A DNA stretch of 64,000 nucleotides from Rhodococcus maanshanensis NBRC 100610 (GTDB lineage: Bacteria > Actinomycetota > Actinomycetes > Mycobacteriales > Mycobacteriaceae): assembly GCF_001894865.1 (NCBI RefSeq), contig NZ_BCXA01000016.1, positions 62,001 to 126,000 of the forward strand. Direction: 5' to 3'. Below are positions 39,625 to 56,933 of this stretch, in pieces. The translations under genes and the position numbers were made by a program. Below the pieces are notes generated by a model, which saw only the letters and a program-made list of their open reading frames with translations, did no database searches and was not told the DNA's origin. Numbering within the stretch: the stretch's first letter is position 1; each line of letters starts with the position of its first letter.

Positions 39625-39744
39625 GGCGACCTCCTTCTCCTAGTGAATGATCACACGACACCGGCGGCGCCACCAGGGGCGACGCGGCTGCGCACAGTCT
39701 CGAAGATCTATGTCATGAATTGATGTCCACGGGGTAACGGCTGT

Positions 39745-40287: not shown

Positions 40288-40316
40288 CGGAACCTCCGTC
40301 TCGGCGAGAAGTGGAG

Positions 40317-40355
40317 ACACGGCGCCCGCCTCGGGGGGATGAGCGGGCGCCGTGT
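40317..40355. terminator. Hairpin between ALDH and the DUF779 gene
   Basis: Perfect 13-bp arms ACACGGCGCCCGC (40317-40329) and GCGGGCGCCGTGT (40343-40355) around a 13-base loop. A third, same-sense copy of CACGGCGCCCGC follows at 40362-40373, allowing an alternative pairing. It may terminate or attenuate between the two genes. Confidence 0.55.
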
Positions 40356-40441
40356 CGTGGTCACGGCGCCCGCCGCAGGGGGGCATTGGCGAGCGCCGTG
40401 CGATCGTGGGCTCGGGCCTGGAGAGGCCTGGGCCTGGCGGA

Positions 40442-41965
<1,524 letters not shown>

Positions 41966-42054
41966 CGAAGGCTCCTCGTGGTGTGCTGTCTCTCCCCTGC
42001 CGACGACGCGGGTGTCGCCCCGGGGGTGTGATTCAGAACACTAGGATCGCGAGG

Positions 42055-42070
42055 GTTGCAACAACGTTGC
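42055..42070. promoter_or_regulatory. Operator-like palindromes upstream of the acetaldehyde dehydrogenase gene
   Basis: GTTGCAAC (42055-42062, perfect 8-bp palindrome) runs into GCAAC-AAC-GTTGC (42058-42070). It lies 90 bases upstream of the ALDH start and 13 bases past the stop of the GAF regulator gene, its likely binder. Confidence 0.5.
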
Positions 42071-42082
42071 GTCCGGTGGAGC

Positions 42083-43396: not shown

Positions 43397-43435
43397 TCGA
43401 GTTCCTCCGTGACGTCCCACCAACTGTAACGCCGG

Positions 43436-44929
43436 TCACACTCTGCCACTCCCCTGGGCGTCGTGCGCGGGACTCGCGTCGCCCTCGATCAGGGCGGACA
43501 CCCGTTCTGCGATCATCACCGCGGTCGCGTGCGGACCGCGCGAGGTGACCACGGGCATCACCGAGGTGTCGGCCACCAGGACCTCGTCCACGCCGATCAC
43601 CCGGCAGCGGTCGTCCACGACGGCGTCGCGGTCGGCCTCCGACCCCATCCGGCAGGTTCCGGACAGGTGCATGGAGGTGCCGAGGTTCTCGAATGTCTCG
43701 CTCGGTGAGGGTCCCGCGCCCGCGGCCACCCGCCCGAACGCCGCCGAGGCCAGCAACCCCCGCGCCAGATCGAGGCCGGACCGCATCGCGGCCCGGTCGG
43801 CTGCGGACGCCAGGTACCGATACCGGACGACCGGCGGGTCCGCCGGGTCGGACGACCGCAGGGTGAGCTCGCCCCTGCTGTCCGGGCGCATCAGCGCCAC
43901 CCCGAGCCGCGGGTCCGGATCCGCCACGCCGGGAATGATCTCCGCGAACGGTGCGGTGTACGGACGGATCTCGATGCCATCCACCTCCAGCACCGCTTCC
44001 AGGACGGCGGTGTGCTCGTTCCTCGGGACGCGCAGGCGAGGCCGGTACGCGAGCGTCACCTCGGGATGGTCGCCGAAGTCGCGGCCGACGCCGGGTCTGT
44101 CCGCGACGACCGGCAGCCCCAGGCCCGAAAGATGTTGTGCTGAACCTATTCCGGAGTGCATCAACAGATGAGCGGTTCCGATCGCACCCGCGCACAACAC
44201 CACCTGACGGGCCGGGAGCAGGCGCAGCTCACCCGCTATCTCCGCCTCGACTCCCACCGCCCGCACACCGTCGAACACCACTCGGCGGGCGACGACGCCG
44301 GTCCGTACCCGCAGATTCGGCCTGCCGAGAATCGGTTCGAGGTAGGCGGCCGCGGTGCTGATCCGGCGCCCCGCGACCGCGTTGAGCGGTACCGGGCCTG
44401 CGCCGTCCGCGTTCGGCGCATTGAGATCCGCCGCGTACCCGAATCCCTCCGTCGCGCAGGCGTCGAGAAAGGCGGAACTGACGGGATGCATGCTCTCGCG
44501 ACCGATCCGGGTAACCGGCATCGGACCGTCGTCACCGTGCCACCGGGAGTTACCCGCCCGGTCGGTCTCGAGCTTCCGAAAGTACGGCAGCACTTCGGAG
44601 TACGACCACGTCGCCGGCCAGCTCCGGAAGTCGGACGCGGTGCCGCGGATGAAGTAGCCGCCGTTGACCGCCCCGGATCCGCCGAGCACCCGGCCGCGGG
44701 CGATGGTCGTGCTGTGCCCTGGCAGCAACTCGACAGGATAGGTCGCGGCGACGTCGCTGCGCGGTCCGACCGGCAGCAGGCCAAGCGGCCCTGGATCGCC
44801 CGAACCGGGCCCGGCTTCGATCAGCAGCACCGCGCGATCGGGGTTCGCGCTCAGGCGCGCGGCAACCACACAGCCGCTGGATCCACCGCCCACCACGATC
44901 ACATCGGCCACCGGATCGGGGGCCGGCAC
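43436..44929 (-). CDS. mftG: Mycofactocin-system GMC oxidoreductase MftG
   Basis: FAD-dependent GMC-family enzyme of 497 residues. It has the FAD fingerprint DVIVVGGGSSGCVVAARLS, the GMC signature RGRVLGGSGAVNGG, and a C-terminal catalytic region with SMHLSGTCRMGS and SRGPHATAVMIAERV. Known role: MftG reoxidises mycofactocinol and links it to the respiratory chain during alcohol use. The GTG start at 44929 is three bases past the mftF stop, so the two are coupled. Position at the end of mftE-mftF-mftG is canonical. Confidence 0.92.
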   Translation of the reverse strand: MPAPDPVADVIVVGGGSSGCVVAARLSANPDRAVLLIEAGPGSGDPGPLGLLPVGPRSDVAATYPVELLPGHSTTIARGRVLGGSGAVNGGYFIRGTASDFRSWPATWSYSEVLPYFRKLETDRAGNSRWHGDDGPMPVTRIGRESMHPVSSAFLDACATEGFGYAADLNAPNADGAGPVPLNAVAGRRISTAAAYLEPILGRPNLRVRTGVVARRVVFDGVRAVGVEAEIAGELRLLPARQVVLCAGAIGTAHLLMHSGIGSAQHLSGLGLPVVADRPGVGRDFGDHPEVTLAYRPRLRVPRNEHTAVLEAVLEVDGIEIRPYTAPFAEIIPGVADPDPRLGVALMRPDSRGELTLRSSDPADPPVVRYRYLASAADRAAMRSGLDLARGLLASAAFGRVAAGAGPSPSETFENLGTSMHLSGTCRMGSEADRDAVVDDRCRVIGVDEVLVADTSVMPVVTSRGPHATAVMIAERVSALIEGDASPAHDAQGSGRV

Positions 44930-44932
44930 CGG

Positions 44933-46330
44933 TCAGCCCCGCAGCCGGGGCTTGAGCGCGGCAATGCTGCGCTCGGCGAGCGCCCCGCGCCAGAGTCCTG
45001 TGCCGTAGGCGATGTCGTCCATCCGCTTGAACACGGTGTGCCGCACCGGCCCCAGTCCGCCGGGCTCGCGGTGCGTGTACCAGTCGGCGAGGCCCTCGGC
45101 CACGGCCACCGCAAGCAAGGCACGACGGACCCGGGACGAGACCAACGCGGCCAGCAGCGTCACCGGCCAATAGTGCCTGCACATCGCGGAGGCGAGCTGC
45201 CAGACCCCGCCAGCAAAGCCCTGCGCGGCGAGGATGACCGAGATCCGGGTCGGCTGGTCGAGCTCCCGGAAGGTCCGGCGCAGGCGGATGACGGTGACGA
45301 GCTGCGCGACAAGGGACCCGGCCAGGCCGAGCCTGGTGCAGGTCGCGGCCAGCAGCACGGCCAGCAACGTCAAGGGCGACATGGCGACGGGCGGCACCAG
45401 CCCCTCGTGCCGGAGCGCGAGCGGGGCCGCACCAGTGCCATAGAAGAGCTTGCGGCCGAACCACTTACGGAACGAGACGCGGTGATCGTGGGCGACATTG
45501 GCGATCGGCTCGTAGCGCAGCCGCCAGCCCGCCGCGTGCAGCCGCCAGCAGAGGTCGACATCCTCGGCCACGTGCATCTCCGCGTCGAACCCGCCGCACT
45601 CCTCGAGCGCACGCCTGCGGACCAGCATCGCCGCACTGGGCACGTAGGACACCGGGCTCCCCGCCCGCACCGCCCCCTCCTTGCGCCCCAGATCGAGCGA
45701 GGATCGAGCGTGCTCGTACCGGGCGATCGCGCCCGCATCGGGTTGGAGAGCGACGATCCGCGGTGCGGCCATCGCGACCGCCGGGTCGCTGAAATGACCC
45801 AGCATCGCCTCGAGCCAGCCCAGTCGGGGCACCACGTCGGAATCCAGGAAGGCCACGTACTCCGTTGTCGCGGCAGCCATCCCGGTGTTGCGGGCGGCAG
45901 CAGGTCCGAGTGCGGTCGGATGGCGGAGCACCCGCACCTCGGCCCGCCCGTCACAGCACGGCGGGGTCGTCACCGGATCGTCGGAACCGTCGTCGACGAC
46001 GATCACCGAGAGTCCGCGCAGCGCGGGCAGCAGTCGATTGAGGCCTGCGATGTTGTTGTGGAGCGGGATGACGACCGTGACGTCCTGGTTCGACGGCGAG
46101 CTCATCGGCCGGGGGTTCGCCACCCCGGAATCGAGGAGGTGCCTGGCAACCTGCGCGGATTGGGTGTCGACCACCTTCAGGTATCCGTCGCCGATCATCG
46201 CCGCCGCGGTCGGGGCGAGCTTGAGCATCCGGGTCGGGGAACCCCCGATCAAAACCCGTCCACCCGAGAAGGTGCGCACCTTTGGATCGATTCGCACCCC
46301 GAATCCGTCGGGCAGTCGAGCTTGGCGCAT
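44933..46330 (-). CDS. mftF: Mycofactocin glycosyltransferase MftF
   Basis: Adds the oligoglucose chain to premycofactocin. The 465-residue protein has a short PqqD-like N-terminal part ([20 protein letters not shown]), a GT2 domain with [20 protein letters not shown] and the DxD site [12 protein letters not shown], then [15 protein letters not shown], and C-terminal transmembrane helices. ATG at 46330 is the first start after the mftE stop, 25 bases away; the earlier ORF start lies inside mftE. Confidence 0.93.
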
Positions 46331-46355
46331 CAGGTGATCGTATTCGGATCTGCTC

Positions 46356-47042
46356 TCACCGCAACATGCCTTTGCCATCTGGTTGCCATCGCAACACGGC
46401 CGCAACACAGCGCGCCACCATCTGCTCGAACACCCGTTCACCTTCGGCCGCACTCGCCCCGGTCGGATCGCCGAGCACCCCGTTCACGCTGACGGACGCG
46501 ATCCCACCGGCCCGCAACCGGTCCATCAGCTCACCGATCGGCTGGGTGACGCCCGGCTGCGCGCGGTCCATCCGTACCTCACCTGGCGAAAGATGCAGCA
46601 GCAGGGAGGTTTCAGTGCGCCCGGCGTGCGCATCTGCCCCCGGCACCGCACAGGGCAACCAGGCGACGTCCCGACCCTCGTAGCGAAGCAACGCGACCGC
46701 TTTGGCGAGGGTGGGTGCGTTGCCGCCGTGCCCGTTCACCAGCAACACGCGCGGCGACCATCGACACGCCGAACGCCCGTACTCGACGACCACGGTCTCG
46801 AGCGCGGACGCGCCGAGCGAGACGGTTCCCGCGAAGCCCTCGTGCTCACCGCTGGCCCCGTAGGCGATGGCGGGAGCGACCGTCAGGCCGGGCAGCGACC
46901 GCGCCACCGCGACCGCGATCCGGGTGTCGGTGTCCAGTGGCAGGTGCGGCCCGTGCTGCTCGAGCGAACCGATCGGCACCGCGATGGCGGGCGCGTCGGC
47001 GTCGATGTCGGGCCAGGTGGCGGCGGCGAGATCCTCGGTCAC
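46356..47042 (-). CDS. mftE: Mycofactocin precursor peptidase MftE (creatininase family)
   Basis: Metallopeptidase that cuts the MftC-modified MftA to release the C-terminal dipeptide-derived product. The 228 residues show the creatininase metal site [31 protein letters not shown] and [14 protein letters not shown] start at 47042. In mycobacteria mftE follows mftD directly; here it is about 6 kb away, behind an SRPBCC and a CGNR gene (83-base gap). Confidence 0.93.
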
Positions 47043-47125
47043 CCCCCGATGCTATGCGCGCCCACCCTGGTGAACGGAGACGTTCGCCCGGACAGGTCGA
47101 ACGGACCATTCCCTCAGCCCGAAAC

Positions 47126-47545
47126 CTACTGGGACAGTTCCACCTCCAGGCGCCCGAGCACGGCACGCCAGTACTCGCGCTGCCGCTCGCGCTCGCCCTG
47201 GTCCGCCAGGCGCTCCTGATGGAACCGCACCGTGGTCCCGGTCGCGGTCTCGCGCATCGCCACCTGGACCGTGCTGTCGTGAGTCCAGTTCCGCGGCCGC
47301 CACGTCAGTCGGATCCGGTCGTGCTCGCGCCTACTGCGCAGTTCCCCACGGGTACCGTCGTCCGCCCGCCAGGCGCCGCCGGCGGCCTCTGGGAGCACCG
47401 CCCCGGTGCCCAACCACACGGCGGGGTACCCCGACAGCAGGCGCCACACCGCCTCCACGGGATACGGCAGCGTCTTCGACACCCCGATCTCCCACCCCGC
47501 GTCCCTGGTCAGCCCCACCTGGCGCGCACTACTCGCCTCGGTCAT
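47126..47545 (-). CDS. SRPBCC/START-fold protein (AHSA1-like)
   Basis: A 139-residue helix-grip protein: GVSKTLPYPVEAVWRLLSGY at the start, a tryptophan-rich strand region (IRLTWRPRNWTHDSTVQVAM) and the closing helix REYWRAVLGRLEVEL, as in AHSA1-like SRPBCC proteins. It likely binds a small hydrophobic ligand; no catalytic function is evident. ATG at 47545 overlaps the CGNR stop (ATGA), so the pair is co-translated. Confidence 0.82.
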   Translation of the reverse strand: MTEASSARQVGLTRDAGWEIGVSKTLPYPVEAVWRLLSGYPAVWLGTGAVLPEAAGGAWRADDGTRGELRSRREHDRIRLTWRPRNWTHDSTVQVAMRETATGTTVRFHQERLADQGERERQREYWRAVLGRLEVELSQ

Positions 47546-48144
47546 GTCCGGCTCTCCCTCCGTCGTCTTGTCCTTGCCTTGTCCCGGTTGCCGCAGCGCG
47601 ACATCGCGCACCAGCGGCGCGCCCCCGGCCGTGAGGTGTCCACGAACACCAGGGCACAATCGTCGGCCGCGCAGCGCCGCACCCGCCCGGCGAGCGGTCC
47701 CCCTACCAACGCGACCGCGTCGCGGGCCACCGAGGCCAGCACGCGTGCCGCCGTGACCGGCGAGGCGACCGCCACCACCCCCGCCGACAGCCGGGGTGCG
47801 AGGTCCGGGCGTGCCGCGACCACGTTGAGCGCGTCGACATCCGCTTCCGCGACCGGTTGGCCGTCGGCGAGCCGATTGATGCTGCGCCACAGCACCTCCC
47901 GCAGCGCGATGGCCTCGGCCAGGTCGGCGGGCCCCACCTCGACCCCCTCCGGCGGGATACTCGCACGGATCAGCTGGGAGGCACTCGCCCAAGCCGCGAG
48001 GTCATGGGGGCTGTGCAGGGTCTCCCACCGTGCCCGCTCGCCGAGACCACCGGTGTAGAGGAAGTCGATGCAGGTGGCGCCGCCGACCACGGAAAACCTT
48101 GCGCCATCCGCGGCGACGAGGGTGACGGCATCGGTCCGACTCAT
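47542..48144 (-). CDS. CGNR zinc-finger (ABATE domain) putative regulator
   Basis: A 200-residue protein with an N-terminal ABATE-type domain (CIDFLYTGG, then EAIALREVLWRSINRLA) and the C-terminal CGNR zinc finger: cysteines in RRCAADDCALVFVD and RRWCAMSRCGNRDKARTRRR. Such proteins are thought to be stress-related transcription factors. ATG at 48144. It forms a tight pair with the SRPBCC gene; a comparable CGNR-SRPBCC coupling is common in actinobacteria. No known link with mycofactocin, although both lie inside the cluster. Confidence 0.85.
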   Translation of the reverse strand: MSRTDAVTLVAADGARFSVVGGATCIDFLYTGGLGERARWETLHSPHDLAAWASASQLIRASIPPEGVEVGPADLAEAIALREVLWRSINRLADGQPVAEADVDALNVVAARPDLAPRLSAGVVAVASPVTAARVLASVARDAVALVGGPLAGRVRRCAADDCALVFVDTSRPGARRWCAMSRCGNRDKARTRRRRESRT

Positions 48145-48237
48145 TGCACCACTTTAACTGGTTACCCCGACTCGTGGTCGAGAATCCGCGGGCCAACTGA
48201 ATCGGCGGCCTACGATCGGCACGTGGGACAGGACCGA

Positions 48238-48828
48238 ATGCCGCTGCGAGGCTTCGGCACCGTGAACTTCGAGCTGATGCTGCTCCGCCGGATGCACGAC
48301 CACCAGCCGGCGCTGGTCCGGGCCGCCCTCAAGAACCTCGGCAAGAGCGCCACCGACCTGCGCGCCGCGCACGCCCAGTGGCAGCGCGGCCTGCGGGGCG
48401 GTTTCCCCGGTGGCGCCTCGCGGTACCGGCTCGCCCTCGGCAGGCCCGCCGTGGTGAGCTCACGCCTGCTGCCCGCGGTCGGCGAGCTGGCCATCGAGGC
48501 CTGGCCGATGCCGCTGTGGCCCGGACTGCAGTTCCAGGTCACCTTCGGGCCCGGAGGGGACGTCGTCGACGAGCGACTCGCCAGGATGCCCGACGGGGCC
48601 ACGCCCGCCATCGCCTCGGTGGCGGATCTGCGGCCGTGGCTGTTGGTCATCGACGACCTGGAGTCGACCTGCTCCCCCGTCCGCTACCGCATGTCCGCCG
48701 GGACCGTCGCCAGCCATGCGGCCGCCGTGTTCGCCACTCCGGACGGCGCAACGTGCGAGGCGCAGTTCTCCTGGGGCCTGCTCCAAACCGCCATGGCCGT
48801 GGATGCCGGAAACCAACAGGCGGACTGA
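48238..48828 (+). CDS. Hypothetical protein, unknown family
   Basis: A 196-residue soluble protein I do not recognise. The N-terminal half is basic and helical (FELMLLRRMHDHQPALVRAA, then LRAAHAQWQRGLRGGFPGG); the second half is beta-rich (FQVTFGPGGDVVDERLARMP, RPWLLVIDDLESTCSP). No signal peptide or membrane helix. ATG at 48238 has ACAGGA just upstream; GTG at 48223 is the alternative. It is on the opposite strand to the mycofactocin genes around it, 23 bases ahead of a histidine phosphatase gene with which it may be transcribed. Confidence 0.7.
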   Translation: MPLRGFGTVNFELMLLRRMHDHQPALVRAALKNLGKSATDLRAAHAQWQRGLRGGFPGGASRYRLALGRPAVVSSRLLPAVGELAIEAWPMPLWPGLQFQVTFGPGGDVVDERLARMPDGATPAIASVADLRPWLLVIDDLESTCSPVRYRMSAGTVASHAAAVFATPDGATCEAQFSWGLLQTAMAVDAGNQQAD

Positions 48829-48851
48829 CCTTCGAAGGGCAGGATGGCCCC

Positions 48852-49421
48852 ATGGCCAAGGACGAGGTGACGCGCGCGACGACGATCATGCTGATCCGGC
48901 ATGCGGAACGACCCGAGGGCGGCGAACCGCCCTTCGGGGTTGACCGGGACGGCACCCGGTGCGACGAATCGCTCACCCCCACCGGCTGGCTACGCGCAAC
49001 CGCGCTCGCAGCGCTCTTCGCGCCCGACGCGGGCGAGCCGCCCGCCGGGCTGGTCCGCCCCGAGGCCCTGTTCGCATCAACACCGAGCAAGAAGGACGGC
49101 AGCAAGCGCTCGCTGCAGACGATCTCGCCGCTGGCCGACAAGCTCGGCGTCGAGGTGGACACCGAGATCGGGCGATCGGAGGTCAAGGCTCTCGCGAAAC
49201 GGGTGTTGCGCACGCCTGGCCCGATCCTGATCTCCTGGCAGCGCGAGTACCTCCCCGAGATCGTCGATGCGCTCGGCGAGGTCGATTCGACGCCGCCCGA
49301 CCCGTGGCCCGAGGATCGCTTCGATGTGATCTGGCTGCTCACCCCGGACGGCGCGCACGGCTGGGTGTTCAGCCAGCTGCCGCAACGCCTGCTGCCGGGC
49401 GATCGCGCCACCGGCATCTGA
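48852..49421 (+). CDS. Histidine phosphatase-like protein
   Basis: A 189-residue protein whose start, TTIMLIRHAERPEGG, carries the RHA/E signature of the histidine phosphatase (phosphoglycerate mutase-like) superfamily; SLTPTGWLRATALAALF and ASTPSKKDGSKRSLQTISPL fit the same fold. A second histidine, usually GH, is not obvious in the C-terminal half (the region reads PILISWQREYLPEIV), so activity is uncertain. It overlaps nothing and ends six bases before the convergent OYE gene. It splits the mycofactocin cluster together with the preceding gene. Confidence 0.77.
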   Translation: MAKDEVTRATTIMLIRHAERPEGGEPPFGVDRDGTRCDESLTPTGWLRATALAALFAPDAGEPPAGLVRPEALFASTPSKKDGSKRSLQTISPLADKLGVEVDTEIGRSEVKALAKRVLRTPGPILISWQREYLPEIVDALGEVDSTPPDPWPEDRFDVIWLLTPDGAHGWVFSQLPQRLLPGDRATGI

Positions 49422-49427
49422 CGCGCC

Positions 49428-51380
49428 TCAGAGCGCCACGGCCACCCGATGCCCCTCCCGCACCGCCGCGTCCGCGCGCCGAGGTGTCAGCGCGTCGCCG
49501 ATCCGATGGACCTCGAACTCGCTGTCGGACAGTTGCTTCCAGAGGCGGTCCTCGGGCTGCTGGTGCACCGCACACACCACCCAGTCGAACTCCGGCTCTG
49601 AGGTCACCCCGGTCGGATGGTGCAGCAGCGCGACCCGAACCGCCGACCCAGCCGCCGCGACGACCCCCATCGGCACCAGGTCCGTGAGCTGCGCGATGCC
49701 CCTGAGGTGCGCCCTGCTCTGCCAGCCCTCCATGTCCAGCGTGAGGCCCAGGTCCTGGCCGACGATCATGCCGTTGGTCGCGACGGTCACCGCACAGCCA
49801 CGTTCGGCGAGCGATTCGGCGACCGACGTCGCCTGGTGGAAGCCCAGCTCGTCGATCACGAGCACGCGGCCACCGGGATCGGCCCGGCCCTCGAGCACGT
49901 CCCGCACGTCCACCACCCGCGCCGACTCCCCTGCCCATCGCGGCCGCTGCGGCCGGGCCCCGGTCGCGACGATCACCGCGTCGGGCGCCAGTGACCGCAG
50001 CAGGTCCGCGTCCACGTCGACGCCGGTCCTGACCTCGACGCCGTACCGAGCGCATTCCGCCTCGAGATTCCGCACCAGGTCGCCGAACTCGGCCCGGCCT
50101 GCCGCAGCCGCCGCGGCTCGGACCTGGCCGCCGATGCGCGCGTCCCTCTCGAACAGCGTCACCCGGTGACCACGCTGCGCCGCCGTGGCCGCGGCCTGCA
50201 GCCCGGCCGGTCCGCCGCCGACGACGCAGACCCGCAGACCGAGCCGTCGCGGCATCGGCAACAGAACCGATTCCCGTCCGGCCATGGGATTCTCGACGCA
50301 TCCGAGCCAGCGGCCCAGGCCGACCCGGCCGATGCACTCCTGATTGCAGGACAGACAGGTCCTGATGTCGCCGGGCCTGCCCGCCGCGGCCTTGGCGGCG
50401 AAATCGGGGTCCGCGATCTGTCCGCGCACGACCCCGATCAGGTCGCAATGGCCCTCCTCGATCGCGAGATCCGCATGCTCCGGGTCCGTGAACCGGCCGA
50501 CGCCGATCACCGGCAGCGTCACCCGCCCGCGGATCGCGTTCGGGATGAACAGGGCATACCCGCGCGGAACCGCCATGGAACCCTCGATCAGGTGCAGGGT
50601 CTGCGTCGCCATGCCGATCGAGGTGTTGATGTAGTCGACGTGTCCGCCGGCCTCCACCATCGCGGCGACCTCGACCGCCTCGTCGAGGTGGATACCGTTC
50701 TCGATCAGCTCCTCGCCGGTCAACCGCACGCCAAGCACCGGCTCTGGCCCGAGCGCCGCGCGCACCGACGCCACGATCTCGAGCAGGAACCGGGCGCGAT
50801 TCGCCAGCGCGCCCCCGTACCGATCCGTGCGCCGGTTGGCGTCGGGTGAGAGGAACGCCCGCACGATCGATGCCTGTGAGCACTGGATCTCGACACCGTC
50901 GAACCCGCCGCGCCTGCAGTGCTCGGCGGTGGCCGCGAAACCCGCTACGAGCTCCTCGATCTCGGCCGCGTCGACCGCCTTCGGCACCTCGCGGAACAGC
51001 GGATCGGCCACCGGACTCGGCGCGAGAACCGGCCGCCGCGAGTACATCCCGGAGCCCTGTCCGCCGTTGTGATTGAGCTGGGCCAAGATCACCGCCCCGT
51101 GGGCGTGCACGGCGTCGGTGATCTTCCGATAGTGCGGGACCACCTCGGGGCGGTACCCCTGGATCAGCTTCTCGTACGGCCAGTCCGACGGGTGCGTGCT
51201 GTGTTCCTCGGTGATGATCAGGCCCGCGCCGCCCCTGGCGCGCGCCTCGTAGTACGCGACGTGCTGTTCGGTTGGCAGGCCGCCGCGGGCACTGTTGGTC
51301 AGGTGCGCCGAGAACACCACCCGGTTCCGCAGCGTCAGCCGACCCAGTGCCAACGGGGTCAGCAGGTGGCGGTAGGTCAT
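49428..51380 (-). CDS. Mycofactocin-system FadH/OYE family oxidoreductase (first type)
   Basis: A 650-residue flavoenzyme related to 2,4-dienoyl-CoA reductase. Residues 1-330 are the OYE TIM barrel (TPLALGRLTLRNRVVFSAHL, RRTDRYGGALANRARFLLEI). A four-cysteine [4Fe-4S] site follows (CLSCNQECIGRVGLGRWLGC), then an FAD/NAD domain with VCVVGGGPAGLQAA and IGGQVRAAA. Families of this type are defined by their co-occurrence with mycofactocin genes; the substrate is unknown. ATG at 51380 overlaps the stop of the sister gene upstream. Confidence 0.87.
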   Translation of the reverse strand: MTYRHLLTPLALGRLTLRNRVVFSAHLTNSARGGLPTEQHVAYYEARARGGAGLIITEEHSTHPSDWPYEKLIQGYRPEVVPHYRKITDAVHAHGAVILAQLNHNGGQGSGMYSRRPVLAPSPVADPLFREVPKAVDAAEIEELVAGFAATAEHCRRGGFDGVEIQCSQASIVRAFLSPDANRRTDRYGGALANRARFLLEIVASVRAALGPEPVLGVRLTGEELIENGIHLDEAVEVAAMVEAGGHVDYINTSIGMATQTLHLIEGSMAVPRGYALFIPNAIRGRVTLPVIGVGRFTDPEHADLAIEEGHCDLIGVVRGQIADPDFAAKAAAGRPGDIRTCLSCNQECIGRVGLGRWLGCVENPMAGRESVLLPMPRRLGLRVCVVGGGPAGLQAAATAAQRGHRVTLFERDARIGGQVRAAAAAAGRAEFGDLVRNLEAECARYGVEVRTGVDVDADLLRSLAPDAVIVATGARPQRPRWAGESARVVDVRDVLEGRADPGGRVLVIDELGFHQATSVAESLAERGCAVTVATNGMIVGQDLGLTLDMEGWQSRAHLRGIAQLTDLVPMGVVAAAGSAVRVALLHHPTGVTSEPEFDWVVCAVHQQPEDRLWKQLSDSEFEVHRIGDALTPRRADAAVREGHRVAVAL

Positions 51381-53335
51381 GGCCGCACGTCCCGGACGGC
51401 CGCCACCGCCGCCGCCCGGCCCTCCCGGATCGCTTCGGCTGCGGTTCGCGGCGCCAGGCAGTCCCCGACGCGGACCGACGCGGGCCGCTGCCGGAACAGC
51501 ATCTCGTCCGGAACCCGGTGCGTGCAGTCGATCAGCGTGGCCGCGGCGTGCACCCGCCGCTCGCCGGTGTAGACGTTCTCCAACAGGACGCCGTACGCGT
51601 CGATCGAGCGAACGGTCACGCTCAGGTGGCGCGAGACGCCTGCCCGCTGCAGCCGGGCATTGGCGGCGGAGAGGTCGCCGGTTCGGCCCAGCTGAACGCC
51701 GACGACCTGGTCCGGTGTCGCGATGGACACCTCGCGGCCACCGGCGGCGAGCCATTCGGCGACCGCGACGGCGACCTGATCCCCCACCGGGTCGAACACC
51801 AGGATCGGGCCCTCCCGCAACGGCTTTCCTGCCAGCACCTCCTGCGGGCTCACGATCTCGACGCTCGCGTTGCGGTCACCTCGCCACGGGTTCGGCACGC
51901 TTCCTGTCGCCAGGATCACCGCGCGGCCTGCGGACCTCGCCGCATCGATCTCCTCGGCCGTGATCGCCCGACCGGCCTCGACATGGACGCCGAGCCGGCG
52001 ACATTCGGACTCCAGCCAGTCCACCAGCGTCGCGAGCGAGGCGCGGCCGCCGCCGACCGCGGCCACCCGCAGCATGCCGCCGAGCCGGGGACCGCGCTCG
52101 GCGAGGGTGACCCGGTGACCGCGCATCGCCAGCACCCGCGCGGCTTCCAATCCTGCGGGCCCGCCGCCGACGACCAGGACGTGACCCGGGTCCTCGGCAG
52201 GCAACCCCTCGTCGGGGTCGATGCTCTCGTGTCCCGCCGACGGATTCCCGACGCAGGTGATGATCGGATTGCGCGGGTCGCGAACCTGACAGGTCTGGTT
52301 GCAGAGCAGGCACGGCCGCGGTGCGGCATCGGCCGGCCGCAGGGACCCGCCGCCGCGCCGCGCCTTGACCACCAGGTCCGGCTCGGCGATCTGCGCGCGG
52401 GTCATCTCCACCGCATCGGCGGCACCGTCCGCGAGCGCGCGCTCCGCCTGATCGGCCTCGATCACGCTGCCCTGCAGCACGACCGGCACCGCACCCGCCA
52501 CCGCCGCGCGGATCGACGCACACAGTTTCACGTTGAACACCGGCGCCGTGTGTGCGTCCGGCCGGTACGCCTCCACCGACATCGGACCGCCGCGGACGAC
52601 GACCAGCAGGTCGATCGAATCCGCCAACTCGCGGGCGTGCCGCGCGGCGATCTCGGGGGTGATCCCCGCCCACGGCGCGAGCTCGTCGCAACTCAGTCGC
52701 AGCGACAGCACCCGGTCGGGACCGAGCTCGCCGCGGACGGCCTCGATCACCTCGCGGGTGAGCCGGAGCCGGTCGACGCCGTACCCGTCGCCGCGCAGGT
52801 TGGTCAACCCCGAGTGGAACTGCCGCAGCAGCGCCCGCGGGCCCGCGTCGAGTTCGACCCCGTCCATCCCGGCATCCCTGGCCGAGGCCGCGGCAGACCG
52901 GAATCCCGCTATCAGCGAGTCGATCTCGACCCGTTCCATCTCCATGGGCAGCTCACGGGTGACGACGTCCGCGACGCGCGAGGGCCCCCACAGTGCCGAC
53001 TGCGAGTTCGCGCTCGAGCCCTGAAGCCCGGTGTGGCCGAGTCCGGCCAGCACCAGCGTTCCGTGCGGCCTGCACGCGGCGGCGACGTCCCGCCAGCCAG
53101 GACCGCAGTCCGCGGCCAGCGGCGCCCGCTCGTACGGCCAGTCGTCGGCGTGTACGGAGGCGACCTCGGTGACGATGATGCCCGCGCCACCGCGGGCGCG
53201 TCGCTCGTAGTACGCGACGTGGCGCCCGGACAGGGAACGGTCGCTGCCCAGGTTCGTCTCGTGGGGTCCGAACAGCACCCTGGACCGGGCGGTACGCCCG
53301 GCCAGGGTGAGTCCTTCGGTCAGCCGCAGCGTCAC
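51377..53335 (-). CDS. Mycofactocin-system FadH/OYE family oxidoreductase (second type)
   Basis: A 652-residue paralogue of the next gene with the same layout: OYE barrel (TARSRVLFGPHETNLGS, HVAYYERRARGGAGIIVTEV), [4Fe-4S] cysteines (CLLCNQTCQVRDPRNPIITC) and a C-terminal dinucleotide domain (VLVVGGGPAGLEAARVLAMR). The two differ enough to be distinct enzymes. GTG at 53335 is 23 bases after the mftD stop, so it is very likely transcribed with mftA-B-C-D. No transporter or CoA-ester gene nearby points to a substrate. Confidence 0.87.
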   Translation of the reverse strand: MTLRLTEGLTLAGRTARSRVLFGPHETNLGSDRSLSGRHVAYYERRARGGAGIIVTEVASVHADDWPYERAPLAADCGPGWRDVAAACRPHGTLVLAGLGHTGLQGSSANSQSALWGPSRVADVVTRELPMEMERVEIDSLIAGFRSAAASARDAGMDGVELDAGPRALLRQFHSGLTNLRGDGYGVDRLRLTREVIEAVRGELGPDRVLSLRLSCDELAPWAGITPEIAARHARELADSIDLLVVVRGGPMSVEAYRPDAHTAPVFNVKLCASIRAAVAGAVPVVLQGSVIEADQAERALADGAADAVEMTRAQIAEPDLVVKARRGGGSLRPADAAPRPCLLCNQTCQVRDPRNPIITCVGNPSAGHESIDPDEGLPAEDPGHVLVVGGGPAGLEAARVLAMRGHRVTLAERGPRLGGMLRVAAVGGGRASLATLVDWLESECRRLGVHVEAGRAITAEEIDAARSAGRAVILATGSVPNPWRGDRNASVEIVSPQEVLAGKPLREGPILVFDPVGDQVAVAVAEWLAAGGREVSIATPDQVVGVQLGRTGDLSAANARLQRAGVSRHLSVTVRSIDAYGVLLENVYTGERRVHAAATLIDCTHRVPDEMLFRQRPASVRVGDCLAPRTAAEAIREGRAAAVAAVRDVRP

Positions 53336-53358
53336 GACCTGCGACGCCTATACCTGGC

Positions 53359-54534
53359 TCAGAGGCCGAGGGGGCGGGCGAATCCCGGCGGGATCACGAT
53401 GTCCGCAGCGGTCAGGTCCTGCACGGACGAGTGCCCGAGACCCAGTAGCGCCGAATCGATTCCACCGCGGAGGATGTCGAGCACGTTCTCGACGCCCGCC
53501 TGGCCGTTGGCCGAAAGGCCCCACAGGTAACCCCGGCCGATCATCACCGCGCGGGCACCGAGGGCGACCGCCTTGACGACGTCGCTGCCGCGCCGGATGC
53601 CGCCGTCGAGCAGCACCTCGATGTCGCTTCCCACCGCCTCCGCGATCGCGGGCAGCGCCCGGATCGGTGCGGGCGTGCCGTCGAGGTTGTTGCCGCCGTG
53701 GTTCGACACCGAGATCGCGGTGACGCCCGCGTCGACCGCGCGCTTGGCGTCGTCGACCCGCATGACGCCCTTGAGCATGAACGGGCCGCCCCACTGCTCA
53801 CGCAGCCATGCGACGTCCTCCCAGGACGGCAGCGGCGTGCCCATCCACTCGCCGTACGCGCCGAAGAAGGTCGGTGCCTGCTCGCCGGGCGCGGCCAGGT
53901 TCGGGGTGGTCAGGTCCGGCACGCGGCCGGTCTTCGCGAACTCCCACAACCACTTCGGCCGGGTGATGGCCTCCGGCGCGAACCGGACCATGGCCTTGAG
54001 GTCCATCTTCTCCGGGATCGCCGGGCTGCCCCAGTCGCGGCCGTGCGAGAAGGACCAGTCCAGGGTCATGATCAGCCCGGTCGCCCCTGCCGCGCGCGCC
54101 CGCTCCATGCGCTGCAGGAGCACCTCCCTGCTGCCGACCCAGTACATCTGGAAGAAGGTCTGCGGGTTGGCCGCCGTCACCTCTTCGATCGACTTGCTGG
54201 CGAACGAACTCAGCCCCATCGCGACGCCGCGGGCGGCTGCGGCCCTTGCGACCGCCACCTCGCCGTCGGGGTGCACGGCCTGCACGCCGGTCGGCGAGAT
54301 CAGCACGGGCATCGAGATCGGCTGTCCCATCACGGTGGTCGACAGATCCCGCTTGTCCGACAGCCCCGCGACGTGCGGGGCGAATCCGAGCTCACCGAAG
54401 GCCGAGGTGTTGTCGTCGAGGGTCAGGCCCTGCTCCGAACCGGCGATCAACGCGCCGTACACCGACTTCGGCAGCCGCTTCTTGGCCCGCCGCTGCGCCT
54501 CCGCAACGGTTTCGAACCAGGCATTCTTGGCCAT
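53359..54534 (-). CDS. mftD: Premycofactocin synthase MftD (FMN-dependent alpha-hydroxy acid dehydrogenase family)
   Basis: Oxidatively deaminates the MftE product to premycofactocin, forming the redox-active dicarbonyl. The 391-residue FMN protein has family blocks FASKSIEEVTAANPQTFFQM, LIMTLDWSF, the catalytic VSNHGGNNLDGTPA and the FMN phosphate region DGGIRRGSDVVKAVALGARA with MIGRGYLWGL. ATG at 54534, 35 bases after mftC. Confidence 0.95.
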   Translation of the reverse strand: MAKNAWFETVAEAQRRAKKRLPKSVYGALIAGSEQGLTLDDNTSAFGELGFAPHVAGLSDKRDLSTTVMGQPISMPVLISPTGVQAVHPDGEVAVARAAAARGVAMGLSSFASKSIEEVTAANPQTFFQMYWVGSREVLLQRMERARAAGATGLIMTLDWSFSHGRDWGSPAIPEKMDLKAMVRFAPEAITRPKWLWEFAKTGRVPDLTTPNLAAPGEQAPTFFGAYGEWMGTPLPSWEDVAWLREQWGGPFMLKGVMRVDDAKRAVDAGVTAISVSNHGGNNLDGTPAPIRALPAIAEAVGSDIEVLLDGGIRRGSDVVKAVALGARAVMIGRGYLWGLSANGQAGVENVLDILRGGIDSALLGLGHSSVQDLTAADIVIPPGFARPLGL

Positions 54535-54569
54535 CACTGAACCTTTTCTACTGAGGTGAACAAGTCTCG

Positions 54570-55787
54570 TTAATTCATTCCCGCGAGCGGGTTCTCGTCG
54601 CAGACCTTGGCGGGCGGGCGCACCATCAGCTGCAGCGGGACGGGTGCCCGCGGGGTGCGGCGGTTCCCGGTGCGGGAGTGGTCGACGCTCGACTTCGGGA
54701 TCTCGCCGCGGGTGCCCGCGAGCGCGGTCTCGCCGTAACCCTGCACGCACTCGGGGTCAGGGCCGTCCATCGGCAGGCCGGTGAAGAACTTGGCCGCCAT
54801 GCAGCCGCCGCGGCAGGAGTCGTAGTGGTCGCACTTGCTGCACGCGCCGCCGGTCTGCGGGGAACGCAGCTCGGCGAACAGGTCGGAGTGCTGCCACACG
54901 TGCTGGAAACCGCCGTCGGCCACGATGTTTCCCGCGAGGAACTGCTCGTGGATCGCGAACGGGCAGGCGTACACGTCGCCGACGGGGTCGATCAGGCACA
55001 CCACCCGTCCCGCGCCACACAGGTTCAGGCCGGGGAGCGCGTCACCGTAGGCGGACAGGTGGAAGAACGAGTCGCCGGTCAGGACACCTTCGCCGTTCGC
55101 GACGAGCCAGTTGTACAGCTCGCGCTGCTGCGGCTGGGTCGGGTGCAGCTCGTCCCAGACGTCGGCGCCACGGCCGGACGGACGGAGCCGGGTGATCCGC
55201 AGCGTCGCGCCGTACTTGTCGGCGAGCGCCTTGAACTCGTCGAGCTGGCCGACGTTGTGGCGGGTGACGACGACCGAGATCTTGGCGTCCTTGAATCCGG
55301 CCTCGGCCAGATTCTCGAGGGCACGGACCGCCATCGCGAAGGACCCGGGGCCGCGCACCGCGTCGTTGACCTCCGCGGTCGCGCCGTCGATGGAGATCTG
55401 CACATCGACGTAGTCGCTGGCGGCAAGCCGGGCGGCGACCTTCTTGTCGATCTTCACACCGTTCGTGGAGAACTTGACGCCGACCTGGTGCTCGGTGGCG
55501 TAGTCCACGAGCTCCCAGAAATCGGACCGGACGGTGGGCTCGCCGCCGCCGATGTTCACGTAGAACACCTGCATCCGCTGCAGCTCGTCGATGATGGACT
55601 TGCACTGCTCGGTGCTCAGCTCGCGCGGATCGCGCCTGCCGGAGGACGACAGGCAGTGCACGCAGGAGAGGTTGCAGGCGTAGGTGAGCTCCCAGGTGAG
55701 GCAGATGGGCGCGTCGAGTCCGAGTTCGAACTGTTCGACGAGCCGGCCGACCGGGGCGGGCGCGGGGCGATCGAGCATGGAGGTCAT
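54570..55787 (-). CDS. mftC: Mycofactocin radical SAM maturase MftC
   Basis: Radical SAM/SPASM enzyme that oxidatively decarboxylates the C-terminal tyrosine of MftA and then forms a C-C bond to the valine. The 405 residues have the SAM cluster motif CNLSCVHC within TWELTYACNLSCVHCLSSSG, NIGGGEPTVR, and a C-terminal SPASM domain with auxiliary-cluster cysteines (CGAGRVVCLIDPVGDVYACP, CSKCDHYDSCRGGC). ATG at 55787; the longer frame runs into mftB and is not coding. Confidence 0.96.
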   Translation of the reverse strand: MTSMLDRPAPAPVGRLVEQFELGLDAPICLTWELTYACNLSCVHCLSSSGRRDPRELSTEQCKSIIDELQRMQVFYVNIGGGEPTVRSDFWELVDYATEHQVGVKFSTNGVKIDKKVAARLAASDYVDVQISIDGATAEVNDAVRGPGSFAMAVRALENLAEAGFKDAKISVVVTRHNVGQLDEFKALADKYGATLRITRLRPSGRGADVWDELHPTQPQQRELYNWLVANGEGVLTGDSFFHLSAYGDALPGLNLCGAGRVVCLIDPVGDVYACPFAIHEQFLAGNIVADGGFQHVWQHSDLFAELRSPQTGGACSKCDHYDSCRGGCMAAKFFTGLPMDGPDPECVQGYGETALAGTRGEIPKSSVDHSRTGNRRTPRAPVPLQLMVRPPAKVCDENPLAGMN

Positions 55788-55828
55788 GGGCTGTGTCCTC
55801 GGGGTGTGGGGTTGCGGATCAGGCGAGC

Positions 55829-56119
55829 TCAGGCCGCGGACGCGCCGGGCACGATCATCTTCGAATCGGCCAGCGTGGCGAGCGCACGGGCGTAGGTGTC
55901 CACCTGCGCCTCGTCGATGCCCGCAGCACGGATGGCGGTCCTGGCGTCGGGATGGTCGGGCAGGGCCCGCACGATCTCGACGATGGTGCGGTTCTTCAGG
56001 AACGAGAGCTTCCTGGTCCCAAAGTGGTAGAGCAACGCCCCGAAAGGTTCGGGGCGCAGCGCCACCTGCGGGTGAAGCTTCCACCCGGTGTCGAGATCCA
56101 CGGTCAGTACACGCCGCAC
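55829..56119 (-). CDS. mftB: Mycofactocin precursor chaperone MftB
   Basis: PqqD-like RiPP recognition protein of 96 residues that binds MftA and delivers it to MftC. The core WKLHPQVALRPEPFGALLYH, FGTRKLSFLKNRTIVEIVRA is the family signature. The start is uncertain: GTG at 56119 overlaps the end of mftA by 16 bases, while GTG at 56101 starts just past the mftA stop and gives 90 residues, closer to the usual length. Neither has a clear ribosome site, so coupling to mftA is likely. Confidence 0.92.
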   Translation of the reverse strand: MRRVLTVDLDTGWKLHPQVALRPEPFGALLYHFGTRKLSFLKNRTIVEIVRALPDHPDARTAIRAAGIDEAQVDTYARALATLADSKMIVPGASAA

Positions 56120-56202
56120 ATGCCGTCGATCGAGACCTCTTCCACCAGGGCCTCCTCGACGAGCTCGGTTCCGGCAACGACGCTTTCGCGATGCTCAGAC
56201 AT
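56104..56202 (-). CDS. mftA: Mycofactocin precursor peptide MftA
   Basis: A 32-residue peptide, the ribosomal precursor of mycofactocin. The C-terminus IDGMCGVY is the conserved core; the last Val-Tyr pair is what MftC modifies and MftE/MftD convert. The acidic leader (TELVEEALVEEVS) is what MftB binds. ATG at 56202 has a strong AGGAGG seven bases upstream. It heads the mftA-B-C-D run; its promoter faces mftR across a 27-bp palindrome. Confidence 0.96.
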   Translation of the reverse strand: MSEHRESVVAGTELVEEALVEEVSIDGMCGVY

Positions 56203-56232
56203 CTACATACCTCCTGTGTCAGGGTTGGCGTC

Positions 56233-56259
56233 AGTCACCGCGATCGGTTCGCTGTGACT
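56233..56259. promoter_or_regulatory. 27-bp palindrome between mftA and mftR, candidate MftR operator
   Basis: Arms AGTCAC (56233-56238) / GTGACT (56254-56259) and the inner GCGA (56240-56243) / TCGC (56249-56252) are symmetric about 56246; 11 of 13 base pairs match. It lies 31 bases upstream of the mftA start and 54 bases from the mftR start, well placed to block both promoters. Confidence 0.7.
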
Positions 56260-56312
56260 CGGCTCACCACACTAATGGCATCGAGTGCACAATGAAAGGT
56301 CCGGAGGGGAAA

Positions 56313-56933
56313 TTGACGCAGGCCGGCAGCAAACCCGCAGGTCGCATTGGTCGTCGACCGTCGACGACGCGCGATCGGATCAGCAATATCGGCATCGAAC
56401 TGTTTGCCGAGCACGGTTTCGAGGAGACCAGCGTCGATCAGATCGCGGAGGCCGCCGGGATCGCCAGGCGTACCTTCTTCCGCTACTTCCCGTCCAAGAA
56501 CGCGGTGCCGTGGGGCGACTTCGACCTCCATCTGGCGAACATGCGCGAGCAGCTCGCCGAACTCCCCCGCGAGATCCCGCTGGCCGAGGGGCTCGCCTCG
56601 GCACTGCTCGAGTTCAACAGCTTCCCGCCCGACGTGGCAGCGCTGCATCGCAAGCGGATGGAGATCATCCTGCAAGCTCCCGCGCTGCAGGCGTATTCGA
56701 TGGTGATGTACGACGGCTGGCGCGGCGTGATCGCCGACTACGTGGCGGACCGGATGGGCTGCCGACCCAGCGACCACCTGCCGCGCACGATCGGCTGGAT
56801 GGTCCTCGGCATCGCCCTCTCCGCCTATGAGCAATGGCTGACCGACGACTCCCTCGAACTGCCGGACCTGCTCCGCGCCGGGAGCGAGGTTCTCTCGCAC
56901 GGGCTCGGCGCCTCCGCGACCGAACGCGACTGA
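56313..56933 (+). CDS. mftR: Mycofactocin-cluster TetR regulator MftR
   Basis: TetR-type repressor of the mft genes; the mycobacterial protein is known to respond to long-chain acyl-CoA. Here 206 residues: helix-turn-helix in ISNIGIELFAEHGFEETSVD and QIAEAAGIARRTFFRYFPSK, then a C-terminal ligand domain. TTG at 56313 is chosen because GGAGG lies just upstream; ATG at 56292 (seven residues more) has no ribosome site. Divergent from mftA, with the candidate operator between. Confidence 0.9.
   Translation: MTQAGSKPAGRIGRRPSTTRDRISNIGIELFAEHGFEETSVDQIAEAAGIARRTFFRYFPSKNAVPWGDFDLHLANMREQLAELPREIPLAEGLASALLEFNSFPPDVAALHRKRMEIILQAPALQAYSMVMYDGWRGVIADYVADRMGCRPSDHLPRTIGWMVLGIALSAYEQWLTDDSLELPDLLRAGSEVLSHGLGASATERD

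What the first reader, a model, noticed from the sequence alone, without database searches (positions are those of the whole stretch)
43436..56933. Rearranged mycofactocin cluster: mftABCD separated from mftEFG by an OYE pair and unrelated genes
All core genes are present (MftA core IDGMCGVY, MftC CNLSCVHC, MftD VSNHGGNN), but instead of the contiguous A-F order of mycobacteria there are about 6 kb between mftD and mftE. That interval holds two FadH/OYE-type flavoenzymes in tight coupling with mftD, two plus-strand genes, and a CGNR-SRPBCC pair ahead of mftE. Either the intervening genes take part in mycofactocin chemistry or the operon was broken by insertion.
Basis: partly seen in the sequence, partly recalled or inferred. 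Interest (0 to 1): 0.75.

Follow-up and report, generated by a model that had tools for sequence, protein, structure and literature searches.

The report
Mycofactocin cluster carrying MftD's likely stand-in
In this Rhodococcus-type bacterium the genes that make the redox cofactor mycofactocin carry two extra flavin enzymes which, in many distant relatives, appear where a normally required biosynthetic enzyme (MftD) is missing, so they may be a second way of making the same cofactor step.

Summary
In detail: a complete mycofactocin cluster (mftR, A-G) with mftD and mftE 6.3 kb apart. The interval has two parts. The OYE pair (NCBIfam TIGR03996/TIGR03997, already named "mycofactocin system") is conserved: in the window's family OYE1 is in 43 of 151 genomes, all with mftE, and follows mftD within 23-121 bp in 39 of the 42 that also have mftD. 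The other four genes are variable cargo. mftE directly follows mftD in only 17 of 116 family genomes.

New here: outside the family OYE1 and MftD exclude each other. Of 35 other genomes with MftC, 27 have MftD only, 8 OYE only, none both or neither. A second sample gives 39 OYE only, 68 MftD only, 2 both. MftD-less clusters keep the GMCGVY precursor and mostly carry OYE1-OYE2 with dedicated ETF and FixC/FixX genes. One printed case fits: Saccharopolyspora lacks mftD, has TIGR03997 and is reported to make mycofactocin (PMC11162802). Best reading: the pair is an ETF-linked alternative to MftD. This is inferred, not shown.

The parts
56313..56933 (+). mftR, TetR-type repressor of the cluster (start inferred)
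   Evidence: TIGR03968 283 bits over cut-off; PF17754 MftR C-terminal domain
56275..56289 (-). MftR-operator-like site between mftR and mftA (TGCACTCGATGCCAT, 1 mismatch to a 15-base part of the footprinted M. smegmatis operator)
   Evidence: operator letters from passages of PMC8728441; a site with 0-2 mismatches is found in 41 of 55 family loci scanned, its place checked only in the window, L072, L108 and L109
56104..56202 (-). mftA precursor peptide, core IDGMCGVY
   Evidence: TIGR03969 52 bits over cut-off
55829..56101 (-). mftB (exact start uncertain)
   Evidence: TIGR03967 115 bits over cut-off, longer frame 55829-56119 scanned
54576..55787 (-). mftC radical SAM maturase
   Evidence: TIGR03962 664 bits over cut-off
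53359..54534 (-). mftD pre-mycofactocin synthase
   Evidence: TIGR03966 735 bits over cut-off
51377..53335 (-). OYE1, mycofactocin-system FadH/OYE oxidoreductase 1
   Evidence: TIGR03996 987 bits over cut-off; 4Fe-4S cysteines kept, FadH catalytic pair and second Rossmann GxGxxG lost
49428..51380 (-). OYE2, mycofactocin-system FadH/OYE oxidoreductase 2
   Evidence: TIGR03997 974 bits over cut-off; same architecture and losses
48852..49421 (+). variable cargo gene p2; no NCBIfam or Pfam hit; a LIRHAER stretch suggests a histidine-phosphatase-like protein (motif recalled, read by eye)
   Evidence: with p1 in L053, L055, L057 of the genus, not in L054, L056
48223..48828 (+). variable cargo gene p1, no family hit
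47542..48144 (-). variable cargo: ABATE/CGNR zinc-finger putative regulator
   Evidence: PF07336 and PF11706; with the SRPBCC gene also before mftE in L055, L063, L092, 3 of 41 other OYE+ family loci
47129..47545 (-). variable cargo: AHSA1-type (SRPBCC) protein overlapping the CGNR gene
   Evidence: PF08327
46356..47042 (-). mftE creatininase-type peptidase
   Evidence: TIGR03964 346 bits over cut-off
44933..46378 (-). mftF glycosyltransferase (start inferred)
   Evidence: TIGR03965 611 bits over cut-off, longer frame to 46453 scanned
43436..44929 (-). mftG GMC-type mycofactocin dehydrogenase
   Evidence: TIGR03970 582 bits over cut-off

Best explanation
This is a complete mycofactocin cluster that probably carries two routes for the same biosynthetic step. 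MftD oxidatively deaminates AHDP to pre-mycofactocin, a step described as aerobic. The OYE1/OYE2 pair (FMN barrel + 4Fe-4S + FAD/ADP-type domain) is most likely the remnant, still selected, of a module that does this dehydrogenation without MftD. An FMN active site would oxidise AHDP (or its glycosylated form), and electrons would leave through the 4Fe-4S cluster to an electron-transfer flavoprotein and an ETF:quinone oxidoreductase (FixC/FixX) into the quinone pool. In many distant relatives that module (OYE1-OYE2-etfA-fixC-fixX-etfB) stands where mftD is absent. In the Rhodococcus-type cluster the pair is kept beside mftD without an ETF gene nearby, so an ETF encoded elsewhere would have to serve it (not searched for). 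The CGNR-SRPBCC pair and the two plus-strand genes are lineage-specific cargo that split the operon before mftE. Shown by calls: anatomy, conserved linkage, exclusion with MftD outside the family, co-occurring ETF/FixCX genes, lost FadH and NADPH-binding motifs. Inferred: the reaction itself, the electron path, and that the family's pair still does it.
For: (1) Mutual exclusion: of 35 non-family genomes with MftC in a 376-genome phylum sample, 27 have MftD over cut-off and no OYE1, 8 have OYE1 and no MftD, 0 both, 0 neither (p = 4.2e-8 ignoring relatedness). Two of the 8 are under the TIGR03996 cut-off (G463, cut by a contig end; G331, nearer OYE2). Best MftD scores in the 8 are at most 278.5 bits (cut-off 470.85), in the range of the second hits of MftD+ genomes (up to 315.5), presumably lactate-dehydrogenase kin. 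(2) Second sample, 288 genomes of the order of G396: OYE1 at E<=1e-110 in 41 (33 over cut-off), MftD over cut-off in 70, 2 in common (G578, on separate contigs; G700, 6% contaminated). (3) On an MftC tree (quick method) the two states among 58 non-family rows need 7 changes, 4 on starred branches. (4) OYE1 takes mftD's place: -13 to 221 bp after mftC in 22 of 28 loci holding both. (5) 44 OYE loci (43 genomes) outside the family: etfA in 32, fixC 29, fixX 27, etfB 23, mftD 0; 27 mftC loci of MftD+ genomes: none of etfA, etfB, fixC, fixX, OYE. NCBIfam names the ETF subunits mycofactocin-associated. (6) MftA ending GMCGVY in all 27 found among 30 OYE-only loci with an mftB or mftC anchor. (7) PMC11162802 (section 28 read) reports Saccharopolyspora clusters lacking mftD but with TIGR03997 and cites production of methylated mycofactocin by S. 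erythraea. (8) OYE1/OYE2 keep the Fe-S cysteines (nearly all rows) and first GxGxxG but lack FadH's Tyr166/His252 and the second (NADPH) GxGxxG in both groups, which fits an ETF-linked rather than NADPH-driven enzyme.
Against: No biochemistry. In the window's family 42 of 43 OYE1+ genomes have mftD as well (the other, G094, is 81% complete), so there the pair replaces nothing. No etf or fix genes were found in the 60 family loci examined (L053-L112). Family OYE1 differs at two putative active-site columns from the MftD-less type (D166 in 39/39 and P169 in 33/39, against N166 in 33/38 and Q169 in 33/38) and is less constrained than mftC (dN/dS 0.28-0.33 against 0.04-0.10 in three pairs), so it may have changed role. 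At the column of TMADH's flavin-linking Cys30 (recalled) OYE2 has Leu in all 79 rows and OYE1 mostly Glu. The column next to FadH Tyr166 is His/Tyr/Phe/Trp in 36 of 38 MftD-less OYE1 rows, so an aromatic there is not excluded. The stand-in could be another member of the module, e.g. the FixC-like protein. G238 and G333 show OYE1 but no OYE2, etf or fix genes in the 19 kb fetched; G331 has one OYE2-like protein with etfA, fixC, fixX. The Acidimicrobiaceae loci L008/L009 carry OYE genes with no mft gene in reach. Exceptions to the exclusion outside the family: G578, G700, and L007's genome (a MAG), which also holds MftD.
Confidence: 0.52

Rival explanations
1. The OYE pair is a mycofactocinol:ETF dehydrogenase: it reoxidises reduced mycofactocin and passes electrons via ETF and FixCX to quinone, an alternative to MftG, while AHDP deamination in MftD-less species is done by something else.
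For: ETF and FixCX genes fit a respiratory outlet. About 25% of MftC genomes lack MftG and what could complement it is called an open question (PMC11778925, passages). No mftG hit in the 44 OYE loci.
Against: The 27 mftC loci of MftD+ non-family genomes have no mftG hit either, so OYE presence does not track MftG loss in these loci. In the window and in 35 of 41 other OYE+ family loci OYE and mftG occur together. It leaves the exclusion with MftD and OYE1's place after mftC unexplained.
Confidence: 0.22
2. In the Rhodococcus-type family the pair has been repurposed (another redox step on mycofactocin or on a mycofactocin-linked substrate), although it is descended from the kind of module that stands in for MftD.
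For: Family OYE1 is one clade (98*, quick tree) next to f86 and L006, which carry the ETF module. It has its own D166/P169 and weaker constraint. No ETF gene in the 60 family loci. A gene of about 0.9 kb lies between OYE1 and OYE2 in 27 of 42 genomes; in 18 of 27 such loci my crude gene caller put it in one SDR cluster, and the two scanned are mycofactocin-coupled SDRs.
Against: Several putative site residues of OYE2 (Q166, S168, S171, A258, T259) are nearly the same in both groups, though column 169 is mostly Gln in the family and His in the others. The position next to mftD is kept.
Confidence: 0.2
3. The pair is an ordinary NADPH-dependent 2,4-dienoyl-CoA or ene reductase that happens to lie in the cluster.
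For: Nearest solved sequence to OYE2 is 2,4-dienoyl-CoA reductase 1ps9 (E 5e-84); OYE1's nearest is NCR (6qkg, 2-naphthoyl-CoA reductase), then 1ps9.
Against: At the columns of FadH Tyr166 and His252 no row of 79 OYE2 and 77 OYE1 has Tyr or His, and the NADPH GxGxxG has an invariant Asp in place of its first Gly. Strict linkage to mft genes in the family.
Confidence: 0.04
4. The whole interval, OYE pair included, is a neutral insertion that broke the operon.
For: The four cargo genes behave this way: gap of 11 bp to 10.4 kb with different genes.
Against: OYE1 directly after mftD in 39 of 42 genomes and under purifying selection; the split genomes G024 and G049 keep the pair with mftR and mftE-F-G.
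Confidence: 0.02

Closest known systems
Mycobacterial mftR-ABCDEFG cluster (as drawn for M. smegmatis)
   Same: All eight genes, MftA core and an MftR operator-like site are present
   Different: OYE pair after mftD, operon split by cargo before mftE; mftE directly after mftD is found in 17 of 116 family genomes with mftD
NCBIfam TIGR03996 / TIGR03997 (mycofactocin system FadH/OYE oxidoreductases 1 and 2)
   Same: Window proteins score far over both cut-offs
   Different: The family names state no reaction; the link to MftD absence and to ETF/FixCX is added here
MftD-less mycofactocin clusters of Saccharopolyspora (PMC11162802, section 28)
   Same: TIGR03997 protein in an mft cluster with IDGMCGVY precursor
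   Different: That report is one genus (17 clusters) and calls the OYE's function unknown; the window still has mftD
Trimethylamine / histamine dehydrogenases (Fe-S flavoenzymes; ETF-linked, recalled for TMADH)
   Same: FMN barrel + 4Fe-4S + dinucleotide-type domain; amine oxidation is the chemistry proposed; MftD-less OYE2 has His in the TMADH His172 column (37 of 38)
   Different: No Cys at the TMADH flavin-linking column, no Tyr169 or Asp267 equivalent in the window's OYE2, and Gln at its His172 column (roles recalled; columns)
FadH 2,4-dienoyl-CoA reductase (1ps9)
   Same: Domain order and four Fe-S cysteines
   Different: Catalytic Tyr166/His252 and NADPH GxGxxG lost

Membership tests
Mycofactocin biosynthetic cluster | MftA with C-terminal VY core plus MftB, MftC, MftD, MftE, MftF | tested here: met
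   All over NCBIfam cut-offs
Mycofactocin biosynthetic cluster | MftR operator 5' of mftA | tested here: met
   Sequence resemblance only: 56275-56289, 1 mismatch over 15 bases; up to 3 mismatches give 5 matches against 3.1 expected, so only this 1-mismatch site counts. The loose palindrome is at chance level
TIGR03996 / TIGR03997 | Score over curated cut-off | tested here: met
   987 against 628 and 974 against 793 bits
FadH (2,4-dienoyl-CoA reductase) | Four 4Fe-4S cysteines | tested here: met
   Kept in all OYE2 rows and all but 0-2 OYE1 rows per column
FadH (2,4-dienoyl-CoA reductase) | Catalytic Tyr166 and His252 (roles recalled) | tested here: not met
   Ser171 and Ala258 in the window's OYE2; no Tyr or His at these columns in 79 OYE2 and 77 OYE1 rows
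FadH (2,4-dienoyl-CoA reductase) | NADPH-binding GxGxxG in the second Rossmann unit | tested here: not met
   First Gly aligned to Asp510, which is Asp in all 79 OYE2 and 77 OYE1 rows
TMADH-type amine dehydrogenase | 6-S-cysteinyl FMN (Cys30) and Tyr169/His172/Asp267 (recalled) | tested here: not met
   Leu27 at the Cys30 column in the window's OYE2 (Glu in its OYE1); Tyr169 and Asp267 columns differ; His172 column is Gln in the window, His in 37 of 38 MftD-less OYE2
TMADH-type amine dehydrogenase | Electrons passed to ETF | not testable with these tools
   Genomic hint only: mft_etfA/etfB/FixCX beside the pair in most MftD-less loci, none beside it in the window
Functional equivalent of MftD (pre-mycofactocin synthase) | Present where MftD is absent in genomes with MftC | tested here: met
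   OYE1 in 8 of 8 MftD-less and 0 of 27 MftD+ non-family MftC+ genomes; holds outside the window's family only, with exceptions G578, G700 and L007's genome in other samples
Functional equivalent of MftD (pre-mycofactocin synthase) | Converts AHDP to PMFT | not testable with these tools
   Needs protein and LC-MS

The most novel reading that the evidence does not exclude
OYE1/OYE2 with mycofactocin-specific ETF and FixC/FixX form a second pre-mycofactocin synthase: an oxygen-independent, quinone-linked amine dehydrogenase with an active site unlike FadH or TMADH, which has stood in for the aerobic flavoenzyme MftD several times across the phylum; Rhodococcus-type bacteria keep both routes.
Probability: 0.45. 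Interest if true: 0.8.

Novelty: new variant of a known kind. Interest (0 to 1): 0.62.

Why it matters
MftD is required for mycofactocin in M. smegmatis (PMC7491314, passages), yet mft clusters without it exist, and the two OYE families and the mft-ETF families have names without reactions. The exclusion pattern turns this into one testable claim: which enzyme makes the redox centre when MftD is absent, and can it work without oxygen. It bears on the open question of how MftG-less species handle mycofactocin electrons (PMC11778925, passages). It also matters for annotation: according to PMC11162802, clusters lacking mftD were classed as ranthipeptides. Rhodococcus-type strains, with both systems in one cluster, would be convenient for genetics.

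Tried and rejected
Rejected: 'recent insertion of the OYE pair' (conserved next to mftD); 'FadH-like ene reductase' (catalytic residues and NADPH motif lost); 'composition-marked island' (GC of the cargo region 0.71, like its surroundings). A promoter/terminator scan gave nothing above chance. The loose palindrome TNNGGCANNNNNTGCCNNA with 2 mismatches is at chance level in the window (28 found, 25 expected) and was not used. The 15-base operator search with up to 3 mismatches found no site before mftE or the CGNR gene.

Counts and dropped rows. In one search the first MftC tree contained two wrongly translated rows (L198, L218) and a very divergent one (L131). One search leaves out L198, L218, L131, L155 and L206 (duplicate genome); half of the 'both' family rows had been thinned; one MftD row (L254) is from G578, which has both. 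One search is a quick-method tree with several long rows, so 7 (4) changes is approximate; my independent-pairs run there was circular (complementary labels) and is not used. One search used about half of the family rows, without the mixture model. The 44 OYE loci come from 43 genomes (G463 gives two), include G578 and G700, and many are cut by contig ends, so presence counts are lower bounds. In one search L160 was printed under MftD+ loci but belongs to G436 (OYE+). The mftA finder demands an aromatic end and a nearby Cys, so the VY ending is partly imposed, the rest is not. The 1/C(35,8) figure ignores relatedness. The dN/dS values are three pairwise comparisons. Whether the window's genome has mft-type ETF genes outside the window was not searched. 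That G001 is Rhodococcus oryzae NEAU-CX67 is inferred from equal contig length (575,723) with L005.

Literature: searches cover open-licence PubMed Central only; 'mycofactocin' with 'electron transfer flavoprotein' found 0 papers. Two relevant papers (Ellerhorst 2022, PMC9679996; Ayikpoe 2019, PMC6449177) are not held, so S. erythraea mycofactocin is cited second-hand. 'Not found' is not 'not published'.

Full report
What is there. The window lies in G000:C16:62001-126000, a genome close to Rhodococcus oryzae by OYE1 identity (89%, L005). Between 43436 and 56933 it holds a complete mycofactocin cluster: mftR (+), and on the minus strand mftA, B, C, D, OYE1, OYE2, then two plus-strand genes, then (minus) CGNR, SRPBCC, mftE, F, G. 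All mft proteins and both OYEs pass NCBIfam cut-offs. The OYEs are already named 'mycofactocin system FadH/OYE family oxidoreductase 1 and 2' (TIGR03996, TIGR03997).

Two kinds of interval. I searched 151 genomes of the family (drawn evenly). MftD is in 116, MftE in 118, OYE1 in 43 (41 over cut-off), OYE2 in 42 (40 over cut-off). Every OYE1+ genome has mftE, and 42 of 43 have mftD (the other, G094, is 81% complete). OYE1 starts 23-121 bp after mftD in 39 of these 42. The other three are on different contigs: in G080 a contig break explains it (L092 begins inside mftD), while G024 and G049 are truly split. OYE1-OYE2 spacing falls into 11 tight cases, 27 with about 0.9 kb, 3 with 1.8-2.1 kb and one across contigs. 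The 0.9-kb gene is a mycofactocin-coupled SDR in the two scanned (L058, L090), and 18 of 27 such loci gave a protein of that cluster. The OYE2-mftE gap is under 200 bp in 13 of 42 and 0.98-10.4 kb in 29. Of its contents I scanned only some proteins: MFS transporters and a thiolase in G005, a GNAT acetyltransferase in G031 (g27), a DUF222/HNH protein in G043 (g10). In the genus, G002 and G004 have no cargo there, G001 has the two plus-strand genes only, G003 has all four genes, and G005 has both plus-strand genes and others. So the operon was broken by cargo at OYE2-mftE, while the OYE pair is a fixed part where present.

Regulation. The window has a sequence with 1 mismatch to a 15-base part of the footprinted MftR operator (PMC8728441, passages), between mftR and mftA, and none before mftE or the CGNR gene. 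In G049, where mftABCD lies on another contig, such a site stands both before mftA (L108) and between mftR and OYE1 (L072). G024 has it between mftR and OYE1 (L109); its mftA region was not in the fetched contig (L110). So the pair keeps an mft-type operator even when separated from mftABCD. Binding was not tested.

Exclusion with MftD. In a 376-genome phylum sample MftC is in 47, of which 35 are outside the family. OYE1 at E<=1e-110 is in 9 of 376: the window's genome and 8 of those 35 (2 of the 8 under cut-off). MftD over cut-off is in the other 27 and in none of the 8. In a second sample of 288 genomes (order of G396), OYE1 is in 41 (33 over cut-off) and MftD in 70, with 2 in common; 35 and 54 of these were not in the first sample, both exceptions included. 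On the MftC tree the two states alternate (7 changes, 4 on starred branches), and group f29 holds both states. Completeness of the 8 is 96-99%, so missing data cannot easily explain the pattern. Haft 2011 (PMC3023750, passages and section 9) already notes that the MftD family is in most but not all mycofactocin species; the words OYE, FadH and old yellow do not occur in it.

The MftD-less module. The common order is mftA-B-C-OYE1-OYE2-etfA-fixC-fixX-etfB-mftE-SDR-mftF, with variants. etfA is NF038209 and etfB TIGR04503, both named mycofactocin-associated in NCBIfam; FixX is a weak family match. Of 44 such loci none has mftD in the stretch fetched; of 27 mftC loci from MftD+ genomes none has OYE, etf or fix genes. 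The precursor ends in GMCGVY in all 27 found among 30 anchored loci, so the same substrate is expected. PMC11162802 (section 28 read in full; passages elsewhere) reports 17 Saccharopolyspora clusters without mftD but with TIGR03997, and cites production of methylated mycofactocin by S. erythraea. This is the printed precedent. It calls the OYE's function unknown and does not mention ETF in that section. PMC7491314 (passages) states that the M. smegmatis mftD mutant accumulates AHDP while mycofactocin congeners are abolished, and PMC8406134 (passages) calls the MftD step aerobic.

The enzymes. Nearest solved sequences are 2,4-dienoyl-CoA reductase (FadH) for OYE2 and NCR (2-naphthoyl-CoA reductase) then FadH for OYE1; histamine and trimethylamine dehydrogenases also rank high. 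In 79 OYE2 and 77 OYE1 sequences the Fe-S cysteines (nearly all rows) and the first GxGxxG are kept, while FadH's Tyr166/His252 and the NADPH GxGxxG are gone. They are therefore unlikely to be FadH-type NADPH reductases; nor do they have TMADH's flavin cysteine. MftD-less OYE2s have His at the TMADH His172 column (37 of 38), family OYE2s mostly Gln (34 of 41). OYE1 differs between the groups at columns 166 and 169. The family OYE1s form one clade next to f86 and L006, which bear the ETF module, so the window's pair probably descends from that kind of module.

Reading. The simplest account is that OYE1/OYE2 perform, or take part in, the AHDP-to-PMFT oxidation with electrons sent to ETF and quinone, standing in for MftD where it is absent; in the Rhodococcus-type family both are kept. 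I give this 0.52. The main weaknesses are the co-existence with MftD in the family, the absence of a linked ETF there, the changed OYE1 site, and the chance that another module member does the chemistry. The strongest rival is a mycofactocinol:ETF dehydrogenase (0.22).

Novelty. The window itself is a member of a catalogued kind. The phylum-wide exclusion, its coupling to ETF/FixCX, and the motif losses were not found in the papers searched (open-licence PubMed Central only, mostly listings); the single-genus precedent is PMC11162802.

Noticed in passing
G016, G028, G040, G053, G055, G059, G064, G065, G069, G081, G119, G139, G150: Thirteen family genomes have two MftD matches, all of them without the OYE pair; in g6 (G040, G059, G139, G150) and in G016 the copies are in tandem, where OYE1 follows mftD in G115 of g6. 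G055's two copies look like an assembly overlap.
   Followed up: no
window 36782-43435: Downstream of mftG lie a regulator with a weak DhaR match, an ExaC-type acetaldehyde dehydrogenase, an ethanolamine permease and ethanolamine ammonia-lyase EutB; a homologue of the regulator is in 33 of 41 other OYE+ family loci.
   Followed up: partly
window 57102-58157: A ferredoxin-type oxidoreductase beside mftR; it stays next to mftR in the split genomes G024 and G049 (L109, L072).
   Followed up: no
G578: L223 and L254: One genome with both an MftD-type mft cluster and, on another contig, an OYE1-OYE2-etfA-fixC-fixX-etfB module without mftC nearby.
   Followed up: partly
G517:C162 (L259) and G518:C80 (L260): MftD-like proteins (about 350 bits, under cut-off) with a TAG inside the match in two Acidimicrobiaceae MAGs whose OYE loci (L008, L009) show no mft genes nearby.
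   Followed up: no
OYE2-mftE junction, family loci L053-L092: A recurrent insertion spot with unrelated cargo in different genera. A DUF222/HNH protein (13E12-type, recalled as mobile-element-like) clusters in 6 loci; few other cargo proteins were scanned.
   Followed up: partly
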